Made by a program: the position numbers and the translations under genes. A DNA stretch of 60,830 nucleotides from the NCBI GenBank assembly GCA_028376655.1, contig JAONAZ010000006.1, positions 1-60,830 of the forward strand. Direction: 5' to 3'. The DNA comes from Acidimicrobiia bacterium. Lineage in GTDB: Bacteria; Actinomycetota; Acidimicrobiia; Actinomarinales; Actinomarinaceae. Positions 24,158 through 29,827 of this stretch are shown here, one piece after another (position 1 is the stretch's first letter; each line of letters begins with the position of its first letter). The notes beneath the pieces are model-generated. The model was given only the letters and a program-made list of their open reading frames with translations. It was not told the DNA's origin and did no database searches.

Positions 24158-24206
24158 TAGTTCATTTTATACGAATTTAGGATTTATAAATAAATGTAGA
24201 AGACTT

Positions 24207-24222
24207 TGTGCATTATTTCACA
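24207..24222 (+). promoter_or_regulatory. CRP/FNR-like palindrome upstream of the UbiA fusion
   Basis: TGTGCATTATTTCACA is a near-perfect palindrome of the TGTGA-N6-TCACA type, ending 19 bases before the ATG at 24242. It differs by one base from the perfect palindrome in front of the rhodopsin gene (28310-28325), and the identity continues into AAGC on the downstream side. It is a likely binding site for a CRP/FNR-family (GlxR-like) regulator. Confidence 0.6.
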
Positions 24223-24241
24223 AGCATATTACTCTAATCTT

Positions 24242-25759
24242 ATGAATGAAGTTCTAGATAGCAAAATACAAAAAGTATTAGATTCTGCCGACAGAATGTT
24301 CATCGCTACAAGTGTTGGTGGGAACTCTTCAGGCGCCTCAGTTTTTTTTAGTAGAGATGGTGAAGATCTTGTATTTTTTACTTTCAATCCAACAAGAAAA
24401 GCTGAACAAATTAGATTAAACCCCAGAGTACATGTAGTCATATGGCCAAAGGGCCAAGAAGGCATTGAAGGTTTACAAATTGATGGAGAATGCTACAAAA
24501 TTAAAGATGAGGATGAAAAAAAGAAGGCTTACGAATTAGTTCTTGAGACCACTGAGGCATTCAAAGAGTATATGGAAGATGAATTTCTCATTAAAAATGA
24601 TGTTGTCGGATACTACAGAGTGAAGCCAACAACTATCAAATATGTTAACTTTTTTGAAGAAGAACAATTTCAGTGGAAGACTATTCCTGGTAACAAAACT
24701 TCCGCATTAAAAATGGCATTCAAACTTGGTTTAAAAAGAATTAGTTTGTGGTTGAGAACAGTTAGAGCCCCCTTTCTAACGGCTACATTTGCTCCAATAT
24801 TTATTGGCGCAGCCGTAGCATGGAGCGATCTCAAAGATAATGGTATTGCCGAGAGCTGGTCATGGAAAATGTTCTGGTTAGTTCTCGGTGGTGCATCTTT
24901 AGCTCAAATTGCAACAAACTCCTCAAATGACTTTTTTGATCATACATCAAATGCTGATGAAATTAACAAAGTAGCTAGTCCTTTCAATGGTGGAAGTAGA
25001 GTAATTCAAGTTGGACTGATGACACCTGGACAAGTACTGATCACTGCTTTAGTCAGCATTATGGGTACTGTTGGAATTGGCTTGTACCTTAATGAACAAG
25101 TAAGTGGTAATTACTTTGGTAACACCCCTATTTTATGGACTGGTGTAATTGGAACATTTTTAGCTTTAGGTTATACAGGAGATCCAGTAAGACTGGGCTA
25201 CAAAGGATTTGGAGAAATAGCTATAGCGCTTGGATTTGGCCCAATCATGGTTATGGGTGCACACTATGTGTTGACCTCTCCTATCCATAATAACGATATA
25301 AATCAATGGAATTGGATTGAAGCACTTATAGCTTCTGTTCCAATAGGGATATTGGTTATGCTTATTGTTTGGATTAATCAATTCCAAGATGCTCCCTCGG
25401 ATGCGGCTGTTGGTAAAAACACATGGGTAGTACGAACAGCAGTCGATGATGGCTGGATGCGACTCGAAAAGCCACTTTCTTTATATAAACAATTCATGGT
25501 TGAAGCTTTTCTCTCTGTTGCAGCTATTGGTCTCTTAGGTCTCTTTACAGATTTCGGAACCGTCTATGCTTTTGCTGCTTTATTACCCGTCCTACTTGTT
25601 TGGAAAGCCTTTAAAATGGCTGATGAATGGATGATCAAGTGGAATGACCCTAATGCTGATCGACAAAAAGTGCCTTATGAGCTCTTACTTGTCAATGTAT
25701 CAACAATAGGTATTCATTTTTTAACAGGAATTTTACTTTCTGTTGCCTACATACTCTAG
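24242..25759 (+). CDS. Fusion: FMN split-barrel (pyridoxamine oxidase-like) domain + UbiA/MenA-type prenyltransferase
   Basis: I choose the ATG at 24242 (MNEVLDSKIQKV), not the TTG at 24206, which would lie inside a promoter palindrome. The product is 505 residues. Residues about 1-140 form a split-barrel flavin-binding domain (FIATSVGGNSSGASVFF, KAEQIRLNPRVHVVIWP). The rest has about eight membrane helices with UbiA Asp motifs, NDFFDHTSNADE and QFQDAPSDAAVGKNT, as in 1,4-dihydroxy-2-naphthoate prenyltransferases (MenA). A UbiE-like methyltransferase follows directly, which fits the last two steps of menaquinone synthesis. The fusion itself is unusual, and the N-terminal domain's redox role is unknown. 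Confidence 0.82.
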   Translation: MNEVLDSKIQKVLDSADRMFIATSVGGNSSGASVFFSRDGEDLVFFTFNPTRKAEQIRLNPRVHVVIWPKGQEGIEGLQIDGECYKIKDEDEKKKAYELVLETTEAFKEYMEDEFLIKNDVVGYYRVKPTTIKYVNFFEEEQFQWKTIPGNKTSALKMAFKLGLKRISLWLRTVRAPFLTATFAPIFIGAAVAWSDLKDNGIAESWSWKMFWLVLGGASLAQIATNSSNDFFDHTSNADEINKVASPFNGGSRVIQVGLMTPGQVLITALVSIMGTVGIGLYLNEQVSGNYFGNTPILWTGVIGTFLALGYTGDPVRLGYKGFGEIAIALGFGPIMVMGAHYVLTSPIHNNDINQWNWIEALIASVPIGILVMLIVWINQFQDAPSDAAVGKNTWVVRTAVDDGWMRLEKPLSLYKQFMVEAFLSVAAIGLLGLFTDFGTVYAFAALLPVLLVWKAFKMADEWMIKWNDPNADRQKVPYELLLVNVSTIGIHFLTGILLSVAYIL

Positions 25760-26387
25760 ATTGCCTAAGTCTGCTAATTTCTCAAAAATATACAGATTCT
25801 ATGATGGCATAAACTCTCTACTCACACTTGGGTTTGATAAATCCTGGAGAGAAAAAGCGTCTCAGCAACTTACTGGTTCAACTGTTTTAGACCTTGGTAG
25901 TGGTACTGGTGCGGCTGAAAAACAACTTATTGGCTATGAAGTGACGGCATTAGATCCTGATGAAAGAATGTTGTCTTTAAATAATTTTTCTAATAAGATT
26001 TTAGGCTCTGCAGAGGCCTTACCTTTCGACGATAAATCTTTTGATAATATCTACTGTGCATTCGTCTGGAGAAATGTCTCAGATACTGATAAAGCTTTTA
26101 AAGAAATAAAAAGAGTTCTTAAAGATGACGGTAACTTTGTGTTGCTTGATATGACGAGGCCATTAAATATGTTCACCAAAAGATTGCATAAGTTGGGCAC
26201 ATTCATAACGTTACATTTGATTGGTATCGTAACATTCAGCTTTAAACAATATAGATTTCTTTACACGTCTTTAGACAAACTAGAAGCTCCTGAATCATTT
26301 CTTAAAGAATCTGGATTCAATAGCTACACCCTCGAGAGAATGGGAATATTTGGTTTTGTATATTTATCTGTACTGAAAAAAAGCTAG
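25743..26387 (+). CDS. UbiE/MenG-like demethylmenaquinone methyltransferase
   Basis: This class I AdoMet methyltransferase has the UbiE-type N-terminus FSKIYRFYDGINSLLTLGFDKSWR, AdoMet motif I VLDLGSGTG, LDPDERML, and the motif region ALPFDDKSFDNIYCAF. It would methylate demethylmenaquinone to menaquinone, matching the prenyltransferase just upstream. The track start (TTG 25743) overlaps the previous gene by 17 bases; a second TTG at 25761 begins right after the upstream stop and is also plausible. At about 209-214 residues it is slightly shorter than typical UbiE. Confidence 0.85.
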   Translation: MPTYSRLPKSANFSKIYRFYDGINSLLTLGFDKSWREKASQQLTGSTVLDLGSGTGAAEKQLIGYEVTALDPDERMLSLNNFSNKILGSAEALPFDDKSFDNIYCAFVWRNVSDTDKAFKEIKRVLKDDGNFVLLDMTRPLNMFTKRLHKLGTFITLHLIGIVTFSFKQYRFLYTSLDKLEAPESFLKESGFNSYTLERMGIFGFVYLSVLKKS

Positions 26388-26393
26388 ATGCTT

Positions 26394-27026
26394 TTATCTG
26401 CTTTCTAAAGCTAGCTGAACTAAAAGTTGACCAACTGCGTCTTGTGGTAAGCTACCAGTTCTTCGTGCCTTAACATTTAATTCATTATCAAGAAATACCC
26501 AGTATGGAAATGATGTAAGACCATATGCATCTCCAATTTTTTTATCTAGATCATATATCTGAGTTTCACTCCAGCCTTCTCTTTCTAGCCAATCGTGAGG
26601 AGGATAATTACCTCTTGATCTGTCAATTGAAGTGGCAACTGCAATTATATCTATACCCTCTGGAACTCCTATAGTATCAATCCATTCTTGTACAGATGGA
26701 ACTTCTGCTTGGCAGTAATTACACCAATGAGCAAGAAAAAGTATAGCTTTAGCATTACCATTTTTTTCAAGTGCGATTATTTCAGAATTTTCATTTGGTC
26801 CAGAAAACGTTGGAGCTGAAAGCCCAATTGCAACATTATCATCATTTTCACCAGCATAAGTTGGTAGCGGATCTCCTGTAACAGTGGTCTCTCCTTCTGG
26901 AAGACCAGCAGTTAAAGGTTCAGTACTTAAAGTAACCCCTACTGCGACAGCAAAGCCAATCACTAAGAGAACACCTGCGGCTATTAAGAAATTTTTATTC
27001 AATGTTTTGTCTCCTTGCATAGTCAT
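26394..27026 (-). CDS. Membrane-anchored TlpA-like thioredoxin-fold protein
   Basis: This 210-residue protein has one N-terminal membrane helix (FLIAAGVLLVIGFAVAVGV) and an external thioredoxin-like domain. The domain has active site AHWCNYCQAEVP (CxxC, about residues 102-105) and the cis-proline loop TSFPYWVF. It is likely a thiol-disulfide oxidoreductase outside the membrane. The ATG lies inside the end of the DsbB-like gene (about 30 nt overlap; a later ATG at 27020 shortens this), so the pair is co-expressed and probably forms an oxidative folding couple. Confidence 0.85.
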   Translation of the reverse strand: MTMQGDKTLNKNFLIAAGVLLVIGFAVAVGVTLSTEPLTAGLPEGETTVTGDPLPTYAGENDDNVAIGLSAPTFSGPNENSEIIALEKNGNAKAILFLAHWCNYCQAEVPSVQEWIDTIGVPEGIDIIAVATSIDRSRGNYPPHDWLEREGWSETQIYDLDKKIGDAYGLTSFPYWVFLDNELNVKARRTGSLPQDAVGQLLVQLALESR

Positions 27027-27519
27027 AATACAATAAAGATATAAATATCGTTAAAAACCCAGTAGCACCCATTACTGGAATACTAATAAAACCGAATATG
27101 TCTACATATTTGAGATTACATGGAATGTCTACTGCGCAAGACCCTCCACCGCCACCACCATTTTGAAGATAAATATGGTACAAACTAACAAAGAGGCCAC
27201 CTAAACTAATAAAGCCAAATTTGTATAAATCCTTTTTAAAAAGTGAAAGAATAAGTATTAATGCTATTGGATACATTAAATAACGTTGGTACCAGCAAAA
27301 TTTACATGGGATAAATCCAACAACTTCAGAGTAAATAATACTTCCAACGGCAGAGAAAGTAGCGACACTTGTTGCGAAGTATAAAAACTGATCAGTAATA
27401 AATTTATTAAAAGTTTTTTTCGTTATATATAGGTATAGAATGCCTGTCGAGATTATCCATGCAGTGACTGTAAAAAACCCAAAGAGAGTATTGAAAAAAA
27501 TAATTTTATCCATGACCAT
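26995..27519 (-). CDS. DsbB-like quinone-dependent disulfide oxidoreductase
   Basis: This 174-residue protein has about five hydrophobic segments. The first DsbB Cys pair is in IPCKFCWYQR and the second periplasmic pair is in SCAVDIPC, preceded by a run of six glycines. DsbB-type proteins reoxidise the external thiol oxidase and hand electrons to quinone. The partner thioredoxin-fold protein is encoded immediately downstream, and menaquinone genes lie two genes away. It is preceded by the rhodopsin terminator, so it has its own transcription start. Confidence 0.85.
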   Translation of the reverse strand: MVMDKIIFFNTLFGFFTVTAWIISTGILYLYITKKTFNKFITDQFLYFATSVATFSAVGSIIYSEVVGFIPCKFCWYQRYLMYPIALILILSLFKKDLYKFGFISLGGLFVSLYHIYLQNGGGGGGSCAVDIPCNLKYVDIFGFISIPVMGATGFLTIFISLLYYDYARRQNIE

Positions 27520-27531
27520 AATTGTACCTAT

Positions 27532-27563
27532 AAAAAAAGATAGGCGGACATTGCCGCCTATCT
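27532..27563 (-). terminator. Rho-independent terminator of the rhodopsin gene
   Basis: On the minus strand GATAGGCGG - CAATGT - CCGCCTATC forms a 9-bp GC-rich stem with a six-base loop, directly followed by TTTTTTT. It lies 22 bases after the rhodopsin stop. It is the clearest intrinsic terminator in the window and implies that rhodopsin is a separate, strongly expressed transcript. Confidence 0.9.
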
Positions 27564-27585
27564 ATAAATTTAATAAGAGTTAAAG

Positions 27586-28251
27586 TTAGACTTTTTCTCC
27601 TGATTGAACTTTTGCCATATTAAGAACTAATACACCAAGACCGACTTTGTTAATAATGTCAGCAACTGTGTATAGAAGCTCTCTCAAGTCCATTAAGTCT
27701 GGACTCACTGCTGGTGCTAAGAATCCTAATGGATAGATTATCCAACCAATAAGAATAAGATTCTTGATTTTTTGGAATGCTTCACCTGCATCACCTGTTA
27801 GTGATGTACCTTCAGCTTGTAGTGCTCTCATTAGAAATGCATAAGCAACCATCGATACTACAAAACCAGTCCAGTATTGTGCATCTCCAGCTTCTGCTGA
27901 TACTTCTCCGTAATATCCTCCACCAATCATTACAAGTGCAGCTGCACCCATAGTTCTGACTTTTTGGGCATACTCTGCACCTTTAGATGTTACTGCAAGA
28001 ACTTCTACGAACATTAATGGAACGGTTAGTACCCAATCAACATATCGCAAAGGTGTGTCAAAGTCTCCTGATGCAAAAGATACTGTCATTTTTTGGTAGT
28101 GATACCATGCAATTCCAGTCACTAATGCTGAGATATATACACCTCTTCTGAATTTCGGATCAACTTCTCTTGATGACATCAGTAAATATACTGTTCCTGC
28201 AAGCATACCTGCAGTTGCCACCATAAAGAGTCTGTATGTAAGTTCGGCCAT
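27586..28251 (-). CDS. Proton-pumping actinobacterial rhodopsin (green-tuned)
   Basis: This 221-residue seven-helix retinal protein has helix C RYVDWVLTVPLMFVEVL, giving Asp72, Thr76 and Glu83 at the proteorhodopsin 97/101/108 positions. That is the D-T-E set of outward proton pumps. Met80 is at the spectral tuning position (proteorhodopsin 105), where Leu/Met means green absorption and Gln blue. His51 (WYHYQKM) matches the counterion partner, and Lys202 (ADIINKVGLG) is the retinal Schiff base. The Shine-Dalgarno AAAGGAGA precedes the ATG. The gene is monocistronic with its own terminator and a CRP-like palindrome upstream. No retinal synthesis gene is in the window. Confidence 0.95.
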   Translation of the reverse strand: MAELTYRLFMVATAGMLAGTVYLLMSSREVDPKFRRGVYISALVTGIAWYHYQKMTVSFASGDFDTPLRYVDWVLTVPLMFVEVLAVTSKGAEYAQKVRTMGAAALVMIGGGYYGEVSAEAGDAQYWTGFVVSMVAYAFLMRALQAEGTSLTGDAGEAFQKIKNLILIGWIIYPLGFLAPAVSPDLMDLRELLYTVADIINKVGLGVLVLNMAKVQSGEKV

Positions 28252-28309
28252 TTTTAAGCGTCTCCTTTATATAGCTTTTAAATATCTTATAATCACAATA
28301 TAGCACGCT

Positions 28310-28325
28310 TGTGAAATAATTCACA
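28310..28325 (-). promoter_or_regulatory. Perfect CRP/FNR-like palindrome upstream of rhodopsin
   Basis: TGTGAATTATTTCACA (minus strand) is a perfect TGTGA-N6-TCACA palindrome ending 58 bases before the rhodopsin ATG. Its right half, TTCACA, could also serve as the -35 box with TATAAG 18 bases on, so a bound protein would act at the promoter. TGTGA-N6-TCACA is the known site of CRP and of the actinobacterial GlxR/CRP proteins. Nineteen of twenty bases, including AAGC, match the site before the UbiA fusion. Confidence 0.65.
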
Positions 28326-28357
28326 TGATTTTGGGTATTTTTAACTTTGCAGGTTAT

Positions 28358-29827
28358 CTATATTTTGGAGCCGTATTTTTCAAGATAACCGCCAAGTTTA
28401 AATTTCTTAGCAGTATTTTCAGAGGTCATATAACGAATTTTTCCATAAATTTTTCTTTCTGGCCCCCACGCTCTATCGTACCTGCCTAGTGACCAGAATA
28501 CCCCTGAGTATGAATTTGGATCTCTACCATCTAAAGCAAATCTATCATTTAAATCAATCATATACGACAAAGCTAATTTAGGATTTGGTGCCCACTCTAA
28601 TATTTTTTTTGCCCAGAGCATTCTTAAATAATTATGAATAATACCCTCTTCTCTTAATTGTGTTTGAGCTGCATTCCATATTTCATCATGAGTTTCAGAA
28701 TTGACTAATTGTTGTAGTGAATAAACATACTCTCTGGGATCATTCGCATGTTCCTCTAGAGTTTTAATTGCCCATTCTGGAAGCGAGGAATACTGGTCAT
28801 AATTGGCTCGCGTAACGCAAGTATGATATCCAAGTTCTCTCCACGTAATAAGCTCGTCAAAGAAACTTTCTAAATTCTCTGATCCGCCCCACCAACCTTG
28901 CCTTCTCCCAACAAAAGCAGGGTTAACATTTTCCATAGACCAGGATTCGAGTTCATTAACTTTGACAAAAATTTCATATGGCGAAATATGGCCAGCGTGT
29001 AAATACGGTGATAGTTGACTACTTGCATCTTCAGATGGATGACTTCTTAATGTTGCGTAATCCTTGTACCCATTTTCTAAAAAGTAATCTAAACGCTCTT
29101 TTGCTTTTTTATAGCCTCCAATAATGGGGCTCTCTTTGACAGTTTTATCGATATTTAAATTGTTTAAAAAGTCTTCTTGATTGAATGTTTCGAAATTTAT
29201 TTTATTCCACTTACTATCTATATCTTTGATTAACTTATCATCAAATTCCACCTCTAATTTGTTAAGAGGATTCTCTTCAGGAACATCCACAAGAAAATCT
29301 AATAGATTTTTATGCATGTATCTGCGAAAGTCATGAGCCCTTACATACTCTTTTTCCGCAATACGAATTGGAATTAGTCCATTGGCATCGATAATTTCAT
29401 AGCGTATGTTAATAACTCCTTTTGCTTTTGCAGTCATTTGAGGAACAAAATAGGTTGGGTAATCATCAGTGACTACTACGGCAGCTTTTGAAGATAGTAT
29501 CGTAAGGAGATCTTCACTTGCATTTGGTGTTTCCTCTGCGTATGGGTAGTAAAAAGCTTTAGTTTTTGAAATATCTTCATCAATATCCTTCATACCCTCA
29601 AGAAAGAATTTATGGAACCTTACGCTGGACATTGGATAATCAAGAATTAATGGATCGAAAATCAGTAGTGGTTTATTAAGTTTATTTGCCCATTCGACAG
29701 CACGTTGAAGGGCAAAGTTATACGATGTTCTTTTAAAATTTATTACCCAATAAAGAACGAATTCTTTATCAATATCTGGCTCAATATCTTTTAATGCAGT
29801 AATTCTGTTATCAGGTACGAGATTCAT
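28358..29827 (-). CDS. phrB: Class II CPD photolyase
   Basis: This 489-residue flavoprotein uses blue/near-UV light to split cyclobutane pyrimidine dimers. Class II landmarks are present: YWVINFKRTSYNFALQRAVEWA at the N-terminus, LSPYLHAGHISPYEIF, DELITWRELGYH, REYVYSLQQLVNSETHDEIWNAAQ, LRMLWAKKILEW, DLNDRFALDGRDPNSYSGVFW and the end GKIRYM. It lies directly upstream of rhodopsin in the same direction, and the rhodopsin promoter sits in the 106-bp gap. Light repair next to light harvesting fits a sunlit-ocean lifestyle. Confidence 0.93.
   Translation of the reverse strand: MNLVPDNRITALKDIEPDIDKEFVLYWVINFKRTSYNFALQRAVEWANKLNKPLLIFDPLILDYPMSSVRFHKFFLEGMKDIDEDISKTKAFYYPYAEETPNASEDLLTILSSKAAVVVTDDYPTYFVPQMTAKAKGVINIRYEIIDANGLIPIRIAEKEYVRAHDFRRYMHKNLLDFLVDVPEENPLNKLEVEFDDKLIKDIDSKWNKINFETFNQEDFLNNLNIDKTVKESPIIGGYKKAKERLDYFLENGYKDYATLRSHPSEDASSQLSPYLHAGHISPYEIFVKVNELESWSMENVNPAFVGRRQGWWGGSENLESFFDELITWRELGYHTCVTRANYDQYSSLPEWAIKTLEEHANDPREYVYSLQQLVNSETHDEIWNAAQTQLREEGIIHNYLRMLWAKKILEWAPNPKLALSYMIDLNDRFALDGRDPNSYSGVFWSLGRYDRAWGPERKIYGKIRYMTSENTAKKFKLGGYLEKYGSKI

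What the first reader, a model, noticed from the sequence alone, without database searches (positions are those of the whole stretch)
24207..28325. Same CRP/FNR-like palindrome controls rhodopsin and the menaquinone prenyltransferase fusion
TGTGAATTATTTCACA sits before rhodopsin (28310-28325, minus) and TGTGCATTATTTCACA before the UbiA fusion (24207-24222). With the following AAGC they match at 19 of 20 positions, and both lie in promoter regions. This suggests one regulator linking light-driven proton pumping to quinone/respiratory capacity, something not commonly described for rhodopsin genes.
Basis: partly seen in the sequence, partly recalled or inferred. Interest (0 to 1): 0.75.

Follow-up and report, generated by a model that had tools for sequence, protein, structure and literature searches.

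The report
NADH-sensing repressor sites controlling rhodopsin
In a tiny sunlight-using ocean bacterium, the gene for its light-driven proton pump and a gene for making the electron carrier menaquinone carry the same DNA switch as respiratory complex I, a switch that fits the redox repressor Rex, so light harvesting appears to be tied to the cell's NADH level.

Summary
The two palindromes are real and are not chance, but the regulator is not CRP/FNR. The full motif is TTGTGAA-N4-TTCACAA, the published operator of Rex, the NADH/NAD+-sensing repressor. No cNMP-binding (CRP/FNR) protein was found in any of 42 genomes of the genus ("Ca. Actinomarina"). An intact Rex was found in 38 of 42, and the window's own assembly breaks four bases into rex. 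A matrix trained only on sites before nuoA, whiB and a copper-ATPase cluster ranks the two window sites first and second (20.3 bits; next 12.0; expected by chance 0.007 per window). Those other targets include Rex targets known in Streptomyces (nuo, a WhiB gene). In both window promoters the operator lies in the same register, 6 nt before a -10 box, which suits repression by occlusion. Upstream of rhodopsin, 20 of 30 distinct sequences keep a canonical or near-canonical operator, 9 have a 1-bp-shorter variant, 1 has none. Genomes whose rhodopsin sits at another locus carry two perfect operators. Actinobacterial rhodopsins outside the genus show no site. The proposed link between proton pumping and quinone/respiratory capacity is supported, with Rex as regulator. 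I found no report of Rex control of a rhodopsin. Binding and expression remain untested.

The parts
28309..28326 (-). Rex operator of rhodopsin, ATGTGAATTATTTCACAA (one mismatch to TTGTGAAN4TTCACAA)
   Evidence: conserved in orthologous loci
28297..28302 (-). putative -10 box TATATT of rhodopsin, 6 nt downstream of the operator; operator overlaps the -35/spacer region
   Evidence: same spacing in L025, L050, L051, L192
28293..28298 (-). TTGTGA half-site at the downstream edge of the -10, in the region where other lineages carry a second, full operator
   Evidence: alignment of 30 upstream regions
27586..28251 (-). type-1 rhodopsin (MACRhodopsin, proton-pump type)
   Evidence: PF01036 E=2.5e-34; D72/T76/E83 invariant; family described in PMC7771536
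27538..27563 (-). terminator-like hairpin after rhodopsin (10 pairs, T-run)
28358..29827 (-). photolyase gene upstream of rhodopsin, same strand
   Evidence: TIGR00591 E=1e-105, below curated cut-off
24206..24223 (+). Rex operator of the UbiA fusion, TTGTGCATTATTTCACAA (one mismatch)
   Evidence: 11 of 11 loci printed (one with a spacer change)
24230..24235 (+). putative -10 box TACTCT (TANNNT in 11 of 11 loci), 6 nt after the operator; 6-8 nt before the first ATG in 10 of 11 loci, implying a leaderless mRNA
24242..25759 (+). PNPOx-like + UbiA prenyltransferase fusion, probable menaquinone (MenA-type) prenyltransferase
   Evidence: PF01040 E=2.4e-24, PF01243 E=1.2e-9; best NCBIfam matches are MenA models, below cut-off
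25743..26387 (+). UbiE/MenG-type methyltransferase, probably co-transcribed with the UbiA fusion
   Evidence: PF01209 E=2.9e-24; TIGR01934 E=8.5e-34, below cut-off

Best explanation
The palindromes are operators of the NADH/NAD+-sensing repressor Rex. In 'Ca. Actinomarina' Rex most likely represses, as one small regulon, the NADH dehydrogenase operon (nuo), a WhiB1-like regulator, a small Cys/His protein with a copper-ATPase cluster, a MenA-type prenyltransferase with a MenG-type methyltransferase, and the proton-pumping rhodopsin. When NADH is low, Rex sits over the -35/spacer (UbiA fusion, window rhodopsin) or just after the -10 (nuo, whiB, and rhodopsin of other clades) and blocks RNA polymerase. 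When respiration cannot keep up and NADH rises, Rex lets go and the cell makes more complex I, more menaquinone and more rhodopsin. Shown here: motif, conservation, register with predicted promoters, presence of Rex. Inferred from Rex biochemistry in other species: binding, repression and the NADH response.
For: Motif equals the published Rex consensus TTGTGAANNNNTTCACAA, and both deviations seen here (TTGTGC, leading A) occur in Rex sites listed for S. avermitilis, TTGTGCACGCGTTCACAA and ATGTGAACGCGTTCACAA. Rex passes the NCBIfam equivalog cut-off (278.5 vs 226 bits), matches Rex proteins of known structure (E to 5e-46), and is in 38 of 42 genomes; the own assembly breaks 4 nt into rex. Independent-target matrix test. 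Conserved targets nuoA and whiB, both Rex-regulated in Streptomyces. Same operator-to-(-10) register in both window promoters. Operators retained, moved or doubled upstream of rhodopsin across the genus. Within the -47 clade the operator core is 97% identical against 82% in the flanks.
Against: No binding or expression data. Nine of 30 distinct rhodopsin upstream sequences carry a variant with the half-sites 1 bp closer (TGTGAACGTTTCACA) and one (G001) has none, so control of rhodopsin is not universal in the genus. The genomes are close relatives, so conservation counts are not independent. Rex itself is missing from the window's own incomplete (78.7%) assembly. Two further genomes without Rex (G014, G016) also lack its neighbour menJ, which fits an assembly gap; the fourth (G046) was not checked this way.
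Confidence: 0.85

Rival explanations
1. A CRP/FNR (or GlxR-type) regulator binds the palindromes.
For: The core TGTGA-N6-TCACA fits the CRP consensus exactly in the rhodopsin copy.
Against: No cNMP_binding domain in any of 42 genomes, with 10 of 14 control genomes positive; the HTH_Crp_2 hit examined is a DtxR-type iron repressor next to a ferrochelatase-like gene. The TT...AA outer bases and the AA/TT inner bases fit Rex.
Confidence: 0.03
2. Rex binds the nuo, whiB and UbiA promoters, but the rhodopsin palindrome has little effect because rhodopsin is mainly co-transcribed from the photolyase promoter.
For: Photolyase is directly upstream on the same strand, and co-transcription is suggested in PMC7771536; only 106 nt separate the genes.
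Against: A TATATT box sits in the same register as in the UbiA promoter, the operator is kept in most lineages despite shifts in position, and genomes with rhodopsin divergent from photolyase carry two perfect operators.
Confidence: 0.1
3. The two window sites resemble each other because of shared promoter elements or recent duplication, not a regulator.
For: Identity extends from the palindrome to AGC (18 of 19), and the UbiA site is nearly invariant across the genus.
Against: The same inverted repeat with different spacers stands before unrelated genes with other promoter geometry (nuo, whiB, small ORF), and the match stops shortly after the palindrome.
Confidence: 0.02

Closest known systems
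Rex regulon of Streptomyces avermitilis (PMC5355995)
   Same: Operator TTGTGAANNNNTTCACAA; targets nuoA1-N1 and a WhiB gene (wblE); proton-motive-force genes (nuo, atp, hppA) under Rex.
   Different: No rhodopsin target is reported and the word menaquinone does not occur in the paper; here rex is divergent from a geranylgeranyl-reductase gene, and rhodopsin, a MenA-type fusion and a copper-ATPase cluster join the regulon.
Rex of Staphylococcus aureus (PMC2883068)
   Same: Binding sequence TTGTGAAW4TTCACAA; repression relieved by NADH.
   Different: Targets are anaerobic and fermentative genes; no light-driven pump.
Bat/Brz control of bacteriorhodopsin in Halobacterium (PMC2253796)
   Same: A rhodopsin proton pump is raised at low oxygen through a redox-type sensor.
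   Different: Archaeal activators (PAS/GAF protein, zinc-finger protein), unrelated to the NADH-binding repressor Rex.

Membership tests
Rex regulon / Rex operator | Inverted repeat TTGTGAA-N4-TTCACAA near the promoter | tested here: met
   One mismatch in each window site; top two matrix hits of the window
Rex regulon / Rex operator | A Rex protein (winged helix + NAD(H)-binding Rossmann domain) in the organism | tested here: met
   38 of 42 genomes of the genus; PF06971 and PF02629, equivalog cut-off passed; own contig ends 4 nt into rex, so the own copy is inferred
Rex regulon / Rex operator | Shared targets with characterised actinobacterial Rex | tested here: met
   nuoA and a WhiB1-like gene against S. 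avermitilis targets
Rex regulon / Rex operator | Rex binds the site and NADH releases it | not testable with these tools
   needs gel shift or footprinting
CRP/FNR regulon | A cNMP-binding/FNR-type effector domain protein in the genome | tested here: not met
   PF00027 in 0 of 42 genomes; the HTH_Crp_2 hit examined is a DtxR-type protein
Type-1 proton-pumping rhodopsin (MACRhodopsin) | Bac_rhodopsin domain with proton-pump carboxylates (D72, E83) and retinal lysine | tested here: met
   PF01036; D72, T76, E83, K202 invariant; the rhodopsins of this group are described as outward proton pumps

The most novel reading that the evidence does not exclude
A light-driven proton pump is a direct member of a bacterial NADH-sensing (Rex) regulon, so the cell adjusts rhodopsin together with complex I and menaquinone according to its redox state; the operator has been moved, doubled or degraded upstream of rhodopsin in different lineages of a highly streamlined ocean bacterium.
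Probability: 0.75. Interest if true: 0.7.

Novelty: new variant of a known kind. Interest (0 to 1): 0.62.

Why it matters
How marine bacteria decide when to make rhodopsin is poorly known. "Ca. Actinomarinales" are described as having little regulatory capability and no identifiable two-component systems (PMC7771536), yet they keep Rex and a handful of conserved operators. If rhodopsin is one of the targets, its expression is predicted to follow NADH/NAD+ and respiratory limitation, not light itself, which can be checked in ocean metatranscriptomes by asking whether rhodopsin and nuo transcripts rise and fall together. It also suggests that light-made proton-motive force and respiration are managed as one budget.

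Tried and rejected
CRP/FNR as regulator. The first scan used a pattern one base too short and was replaced. Weaker one-mismatch sites in the own genome (L233-L236) mostly overlap predicted reading frames of unrelated genes and look like chance. Sites L001-L003, which match only the loose 16-mer, were set aside. Search for Rex sites before rhodopsins elsewhere in the phylum: best 4-7 mismatches in 30 loci (the earlier version, missed many reading frames). Literature searches for Rex with rhodopsin found nothing relevant; the library is open-access only, so absence there is weak evidence. The published suggestion that rhodopsin is co-transcribed with photolyase was weighed; a promoter of its own seems likelier but both may occur.

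Full report
What is there. The two palindromes are present as stated and are the only exact matches to TGTG-N7-TCACA in the window. Extended by one base each side they read ATGTGAATTATTTCACAA (28309-28326, minus, before rhodopsin) and TTGTGCATTATTTCACAA (24206-24223, plus, before the UbiA fusion).

Which regulator. The 18-bp motif TTGTGAA-N4-TTCACAA is the operator of Rex, the repressor that binds DNA when NADH is low and lets go when NADH binds: consensus TTGTGAAW4TTCACAA in S. aureus (PMC2883068) and TTGTGAANNNNTTCACAA in S. avermitilis (PMC5355995). The two deviations seen in the window both occur in Rex sites listed for S. avermitilis (TTGTGCACGCGTTCACAA before rex-hemAC1DB, ATGTGAACGCGTTCACAA in the preceding table row). 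No protein with the cNMP-binding domain of CRP/FNR was found in any of 42 genomes of the genus. HTH_Crp_2 gives short helix-turn-helix hits in 33 genomes, 15 of them over the cut-off; the one examined is a DtxR-type iron repressor beside a ferrochelatase-like gene. Rex was found in 38 of 42 genomes, passes an NCBIfam equivalog cut-off and aligns with Rex proteins of known structure, including the QVRxDLSYxGxxGxRGxGY winged-helix segment and the GxGxxG NAD(H) site.

The missing own copy. The window's assembly (883 kb, 78.7% complete) has no rex hit. Its contig C18 starts with TCACTAATGCACAATC..., which matches the rex-menJ intergenic region of relative G044 and begins at the reverse complement of GTGA, the first four bases of rex. 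The gene is therefore cut by the contig end. G014 and G016 lack both rex and the neighbouring menJ, again consistent with a gap.

The regulon. Perfect operators in the own genome stand before nuoA (14 nt before its start in L004), before a WhiB gene close to WhiB1, before a 63-64 aa Cys/His-containing ORF followed by an HMA-domain protein and a copper-type ATPase, and, in the own genome and in G044 among those examined, before a lipoprotein-like gene and a zinc-type quinone oxidoreductase. The first three and the UbiA site recur at the same place in relatives. nuo and a WhiB gene are experimentally established Rex targets in S. avermitilis. A matrix built only from the nuo, whiB and small-ORF sites gives the two window sites the top two scores of the window (20.3 bits each, next 12.0; 0.007 such hits expected per window in simulation).

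Promoter anatomy. Before the UbiA fusion, operator, 6 nt, TANNNT is found in 11 of 11 loci, and an ATG follows 6-8 nt later in 10 of them (the 1-nt value for L083 is an extra ATG inside the spacer), implying a leaderless mRNA. The window rhodopsin has the same register: operator, 6 nt, TATATT, then 45 nt to the ATG. So the operator covers the -35/spacer in both, which explains why the two look so alike and suits repression by occlusion. In nuo and whiB the operator lies just after a predicted -10 (my reading of the sequences).

Evolution upstream of rhodopsin. Thirty distinct upstream sequences (about 33 genomes) were compared. Eighteen have an operator with normal spacing, two differ by TAGTG for TTGTG, nine have the half-sites one base closer (TGTGAACGTTTCACA), and one (G001) has none. 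The position differs: about -74 in the window's clade, about -47 in a second clade, and both positions, 41 bp apart and flanking the -10, in G012, G042 and G013. In G042 and G013 rhodopsin is at another locus, divergent from photolyase, as described for genus G4 in PMC7771536. The window sequence keeps a TTGTGA half-site at the end of its -10. A simple reading is a two-operator ancestor with one or the other decaying, though gain is not excluded. In the -47 clade the operator core is 97% identical against about 82% in the flanks. Outside the genus, 30 actinobacterial rhodopsin loci have 4-7 mismatches at best, so this control appears specific to the genus.

How it would work. Rex bound when NADH is low keeps complex I, the MenA-type prenyltransferase and rhodopsin down; rising NADH, as when oxygen or electron flow limits, releases all of them. 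Rex controls other proton-motive-force genes in Streptomyces (nuo, atp, hppA), so a rhodopsin pump is a natural addition. Functionally this resembles the low-oxygen induction of bacteriorhodopsin through Bat/Brz in Halobacterium (PMC2253796), with unrelated regulators. Binding, direction of control and the NADH response are inferred, not shown.

Novelty. Searches of the open-access library for Rex with rhodopsin gave nothing relevant, and the Actinomarinales genome paper does not mention Rex in its text. Subscription papers, including Rex regulon reconstructions, could not be searched. The regulator and operator are known; rhodopsin as a target appears new.

Noticed in passing
L005 1501-2000; also L082, L090, L097, L103, L108, L112: A highly conserved 63-64 aa ORF (MTDGLKASQIKGG..., CX4C and CX2H pattern) sits directly after a perfect, spacer-invariant Rex site (TTGTGAATATATTCACAA), followed by an HMA protein and a copper-type ATPase; no Pfam or NCBIfam match.
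   Followed up: partly
window 27538-28357: Rhodopsin, described in the literature as likely co-transcribed with photolyase, has its own predicted promoter and operator between the two genes and a terminator-like hairpin after it.
   Followed up: partly
L239 2995-5247; L240 1288-3541: Rhodopsin at a different locus, divergent from photolyase, with two perfect Rex operators 41 bp apart in the shared intergenic region.
   Followed up: partly
L040-L049 rhodopsin upstream regions: A whole clade has the half-sites one base closer (TGTGAACGTTTCACA) at rhodopsin, while the members examined (G005, G006) keep normally spaced sites at other targets.
   Followed up: partly
L006, L099: Extra perfect Rex site before a lipoprotein-like gene and a zinc-type quinone oxidoreductase in the window genome and in G044 among the genomes examined.
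   Followed up: no
window 24242-25759: The prenyltransferase is fused to an N-terminal pyridoxamine-phosphate-oxidase-like flavin-binding domain, which also has a weak match to an F420-type family.
   Followed up: no
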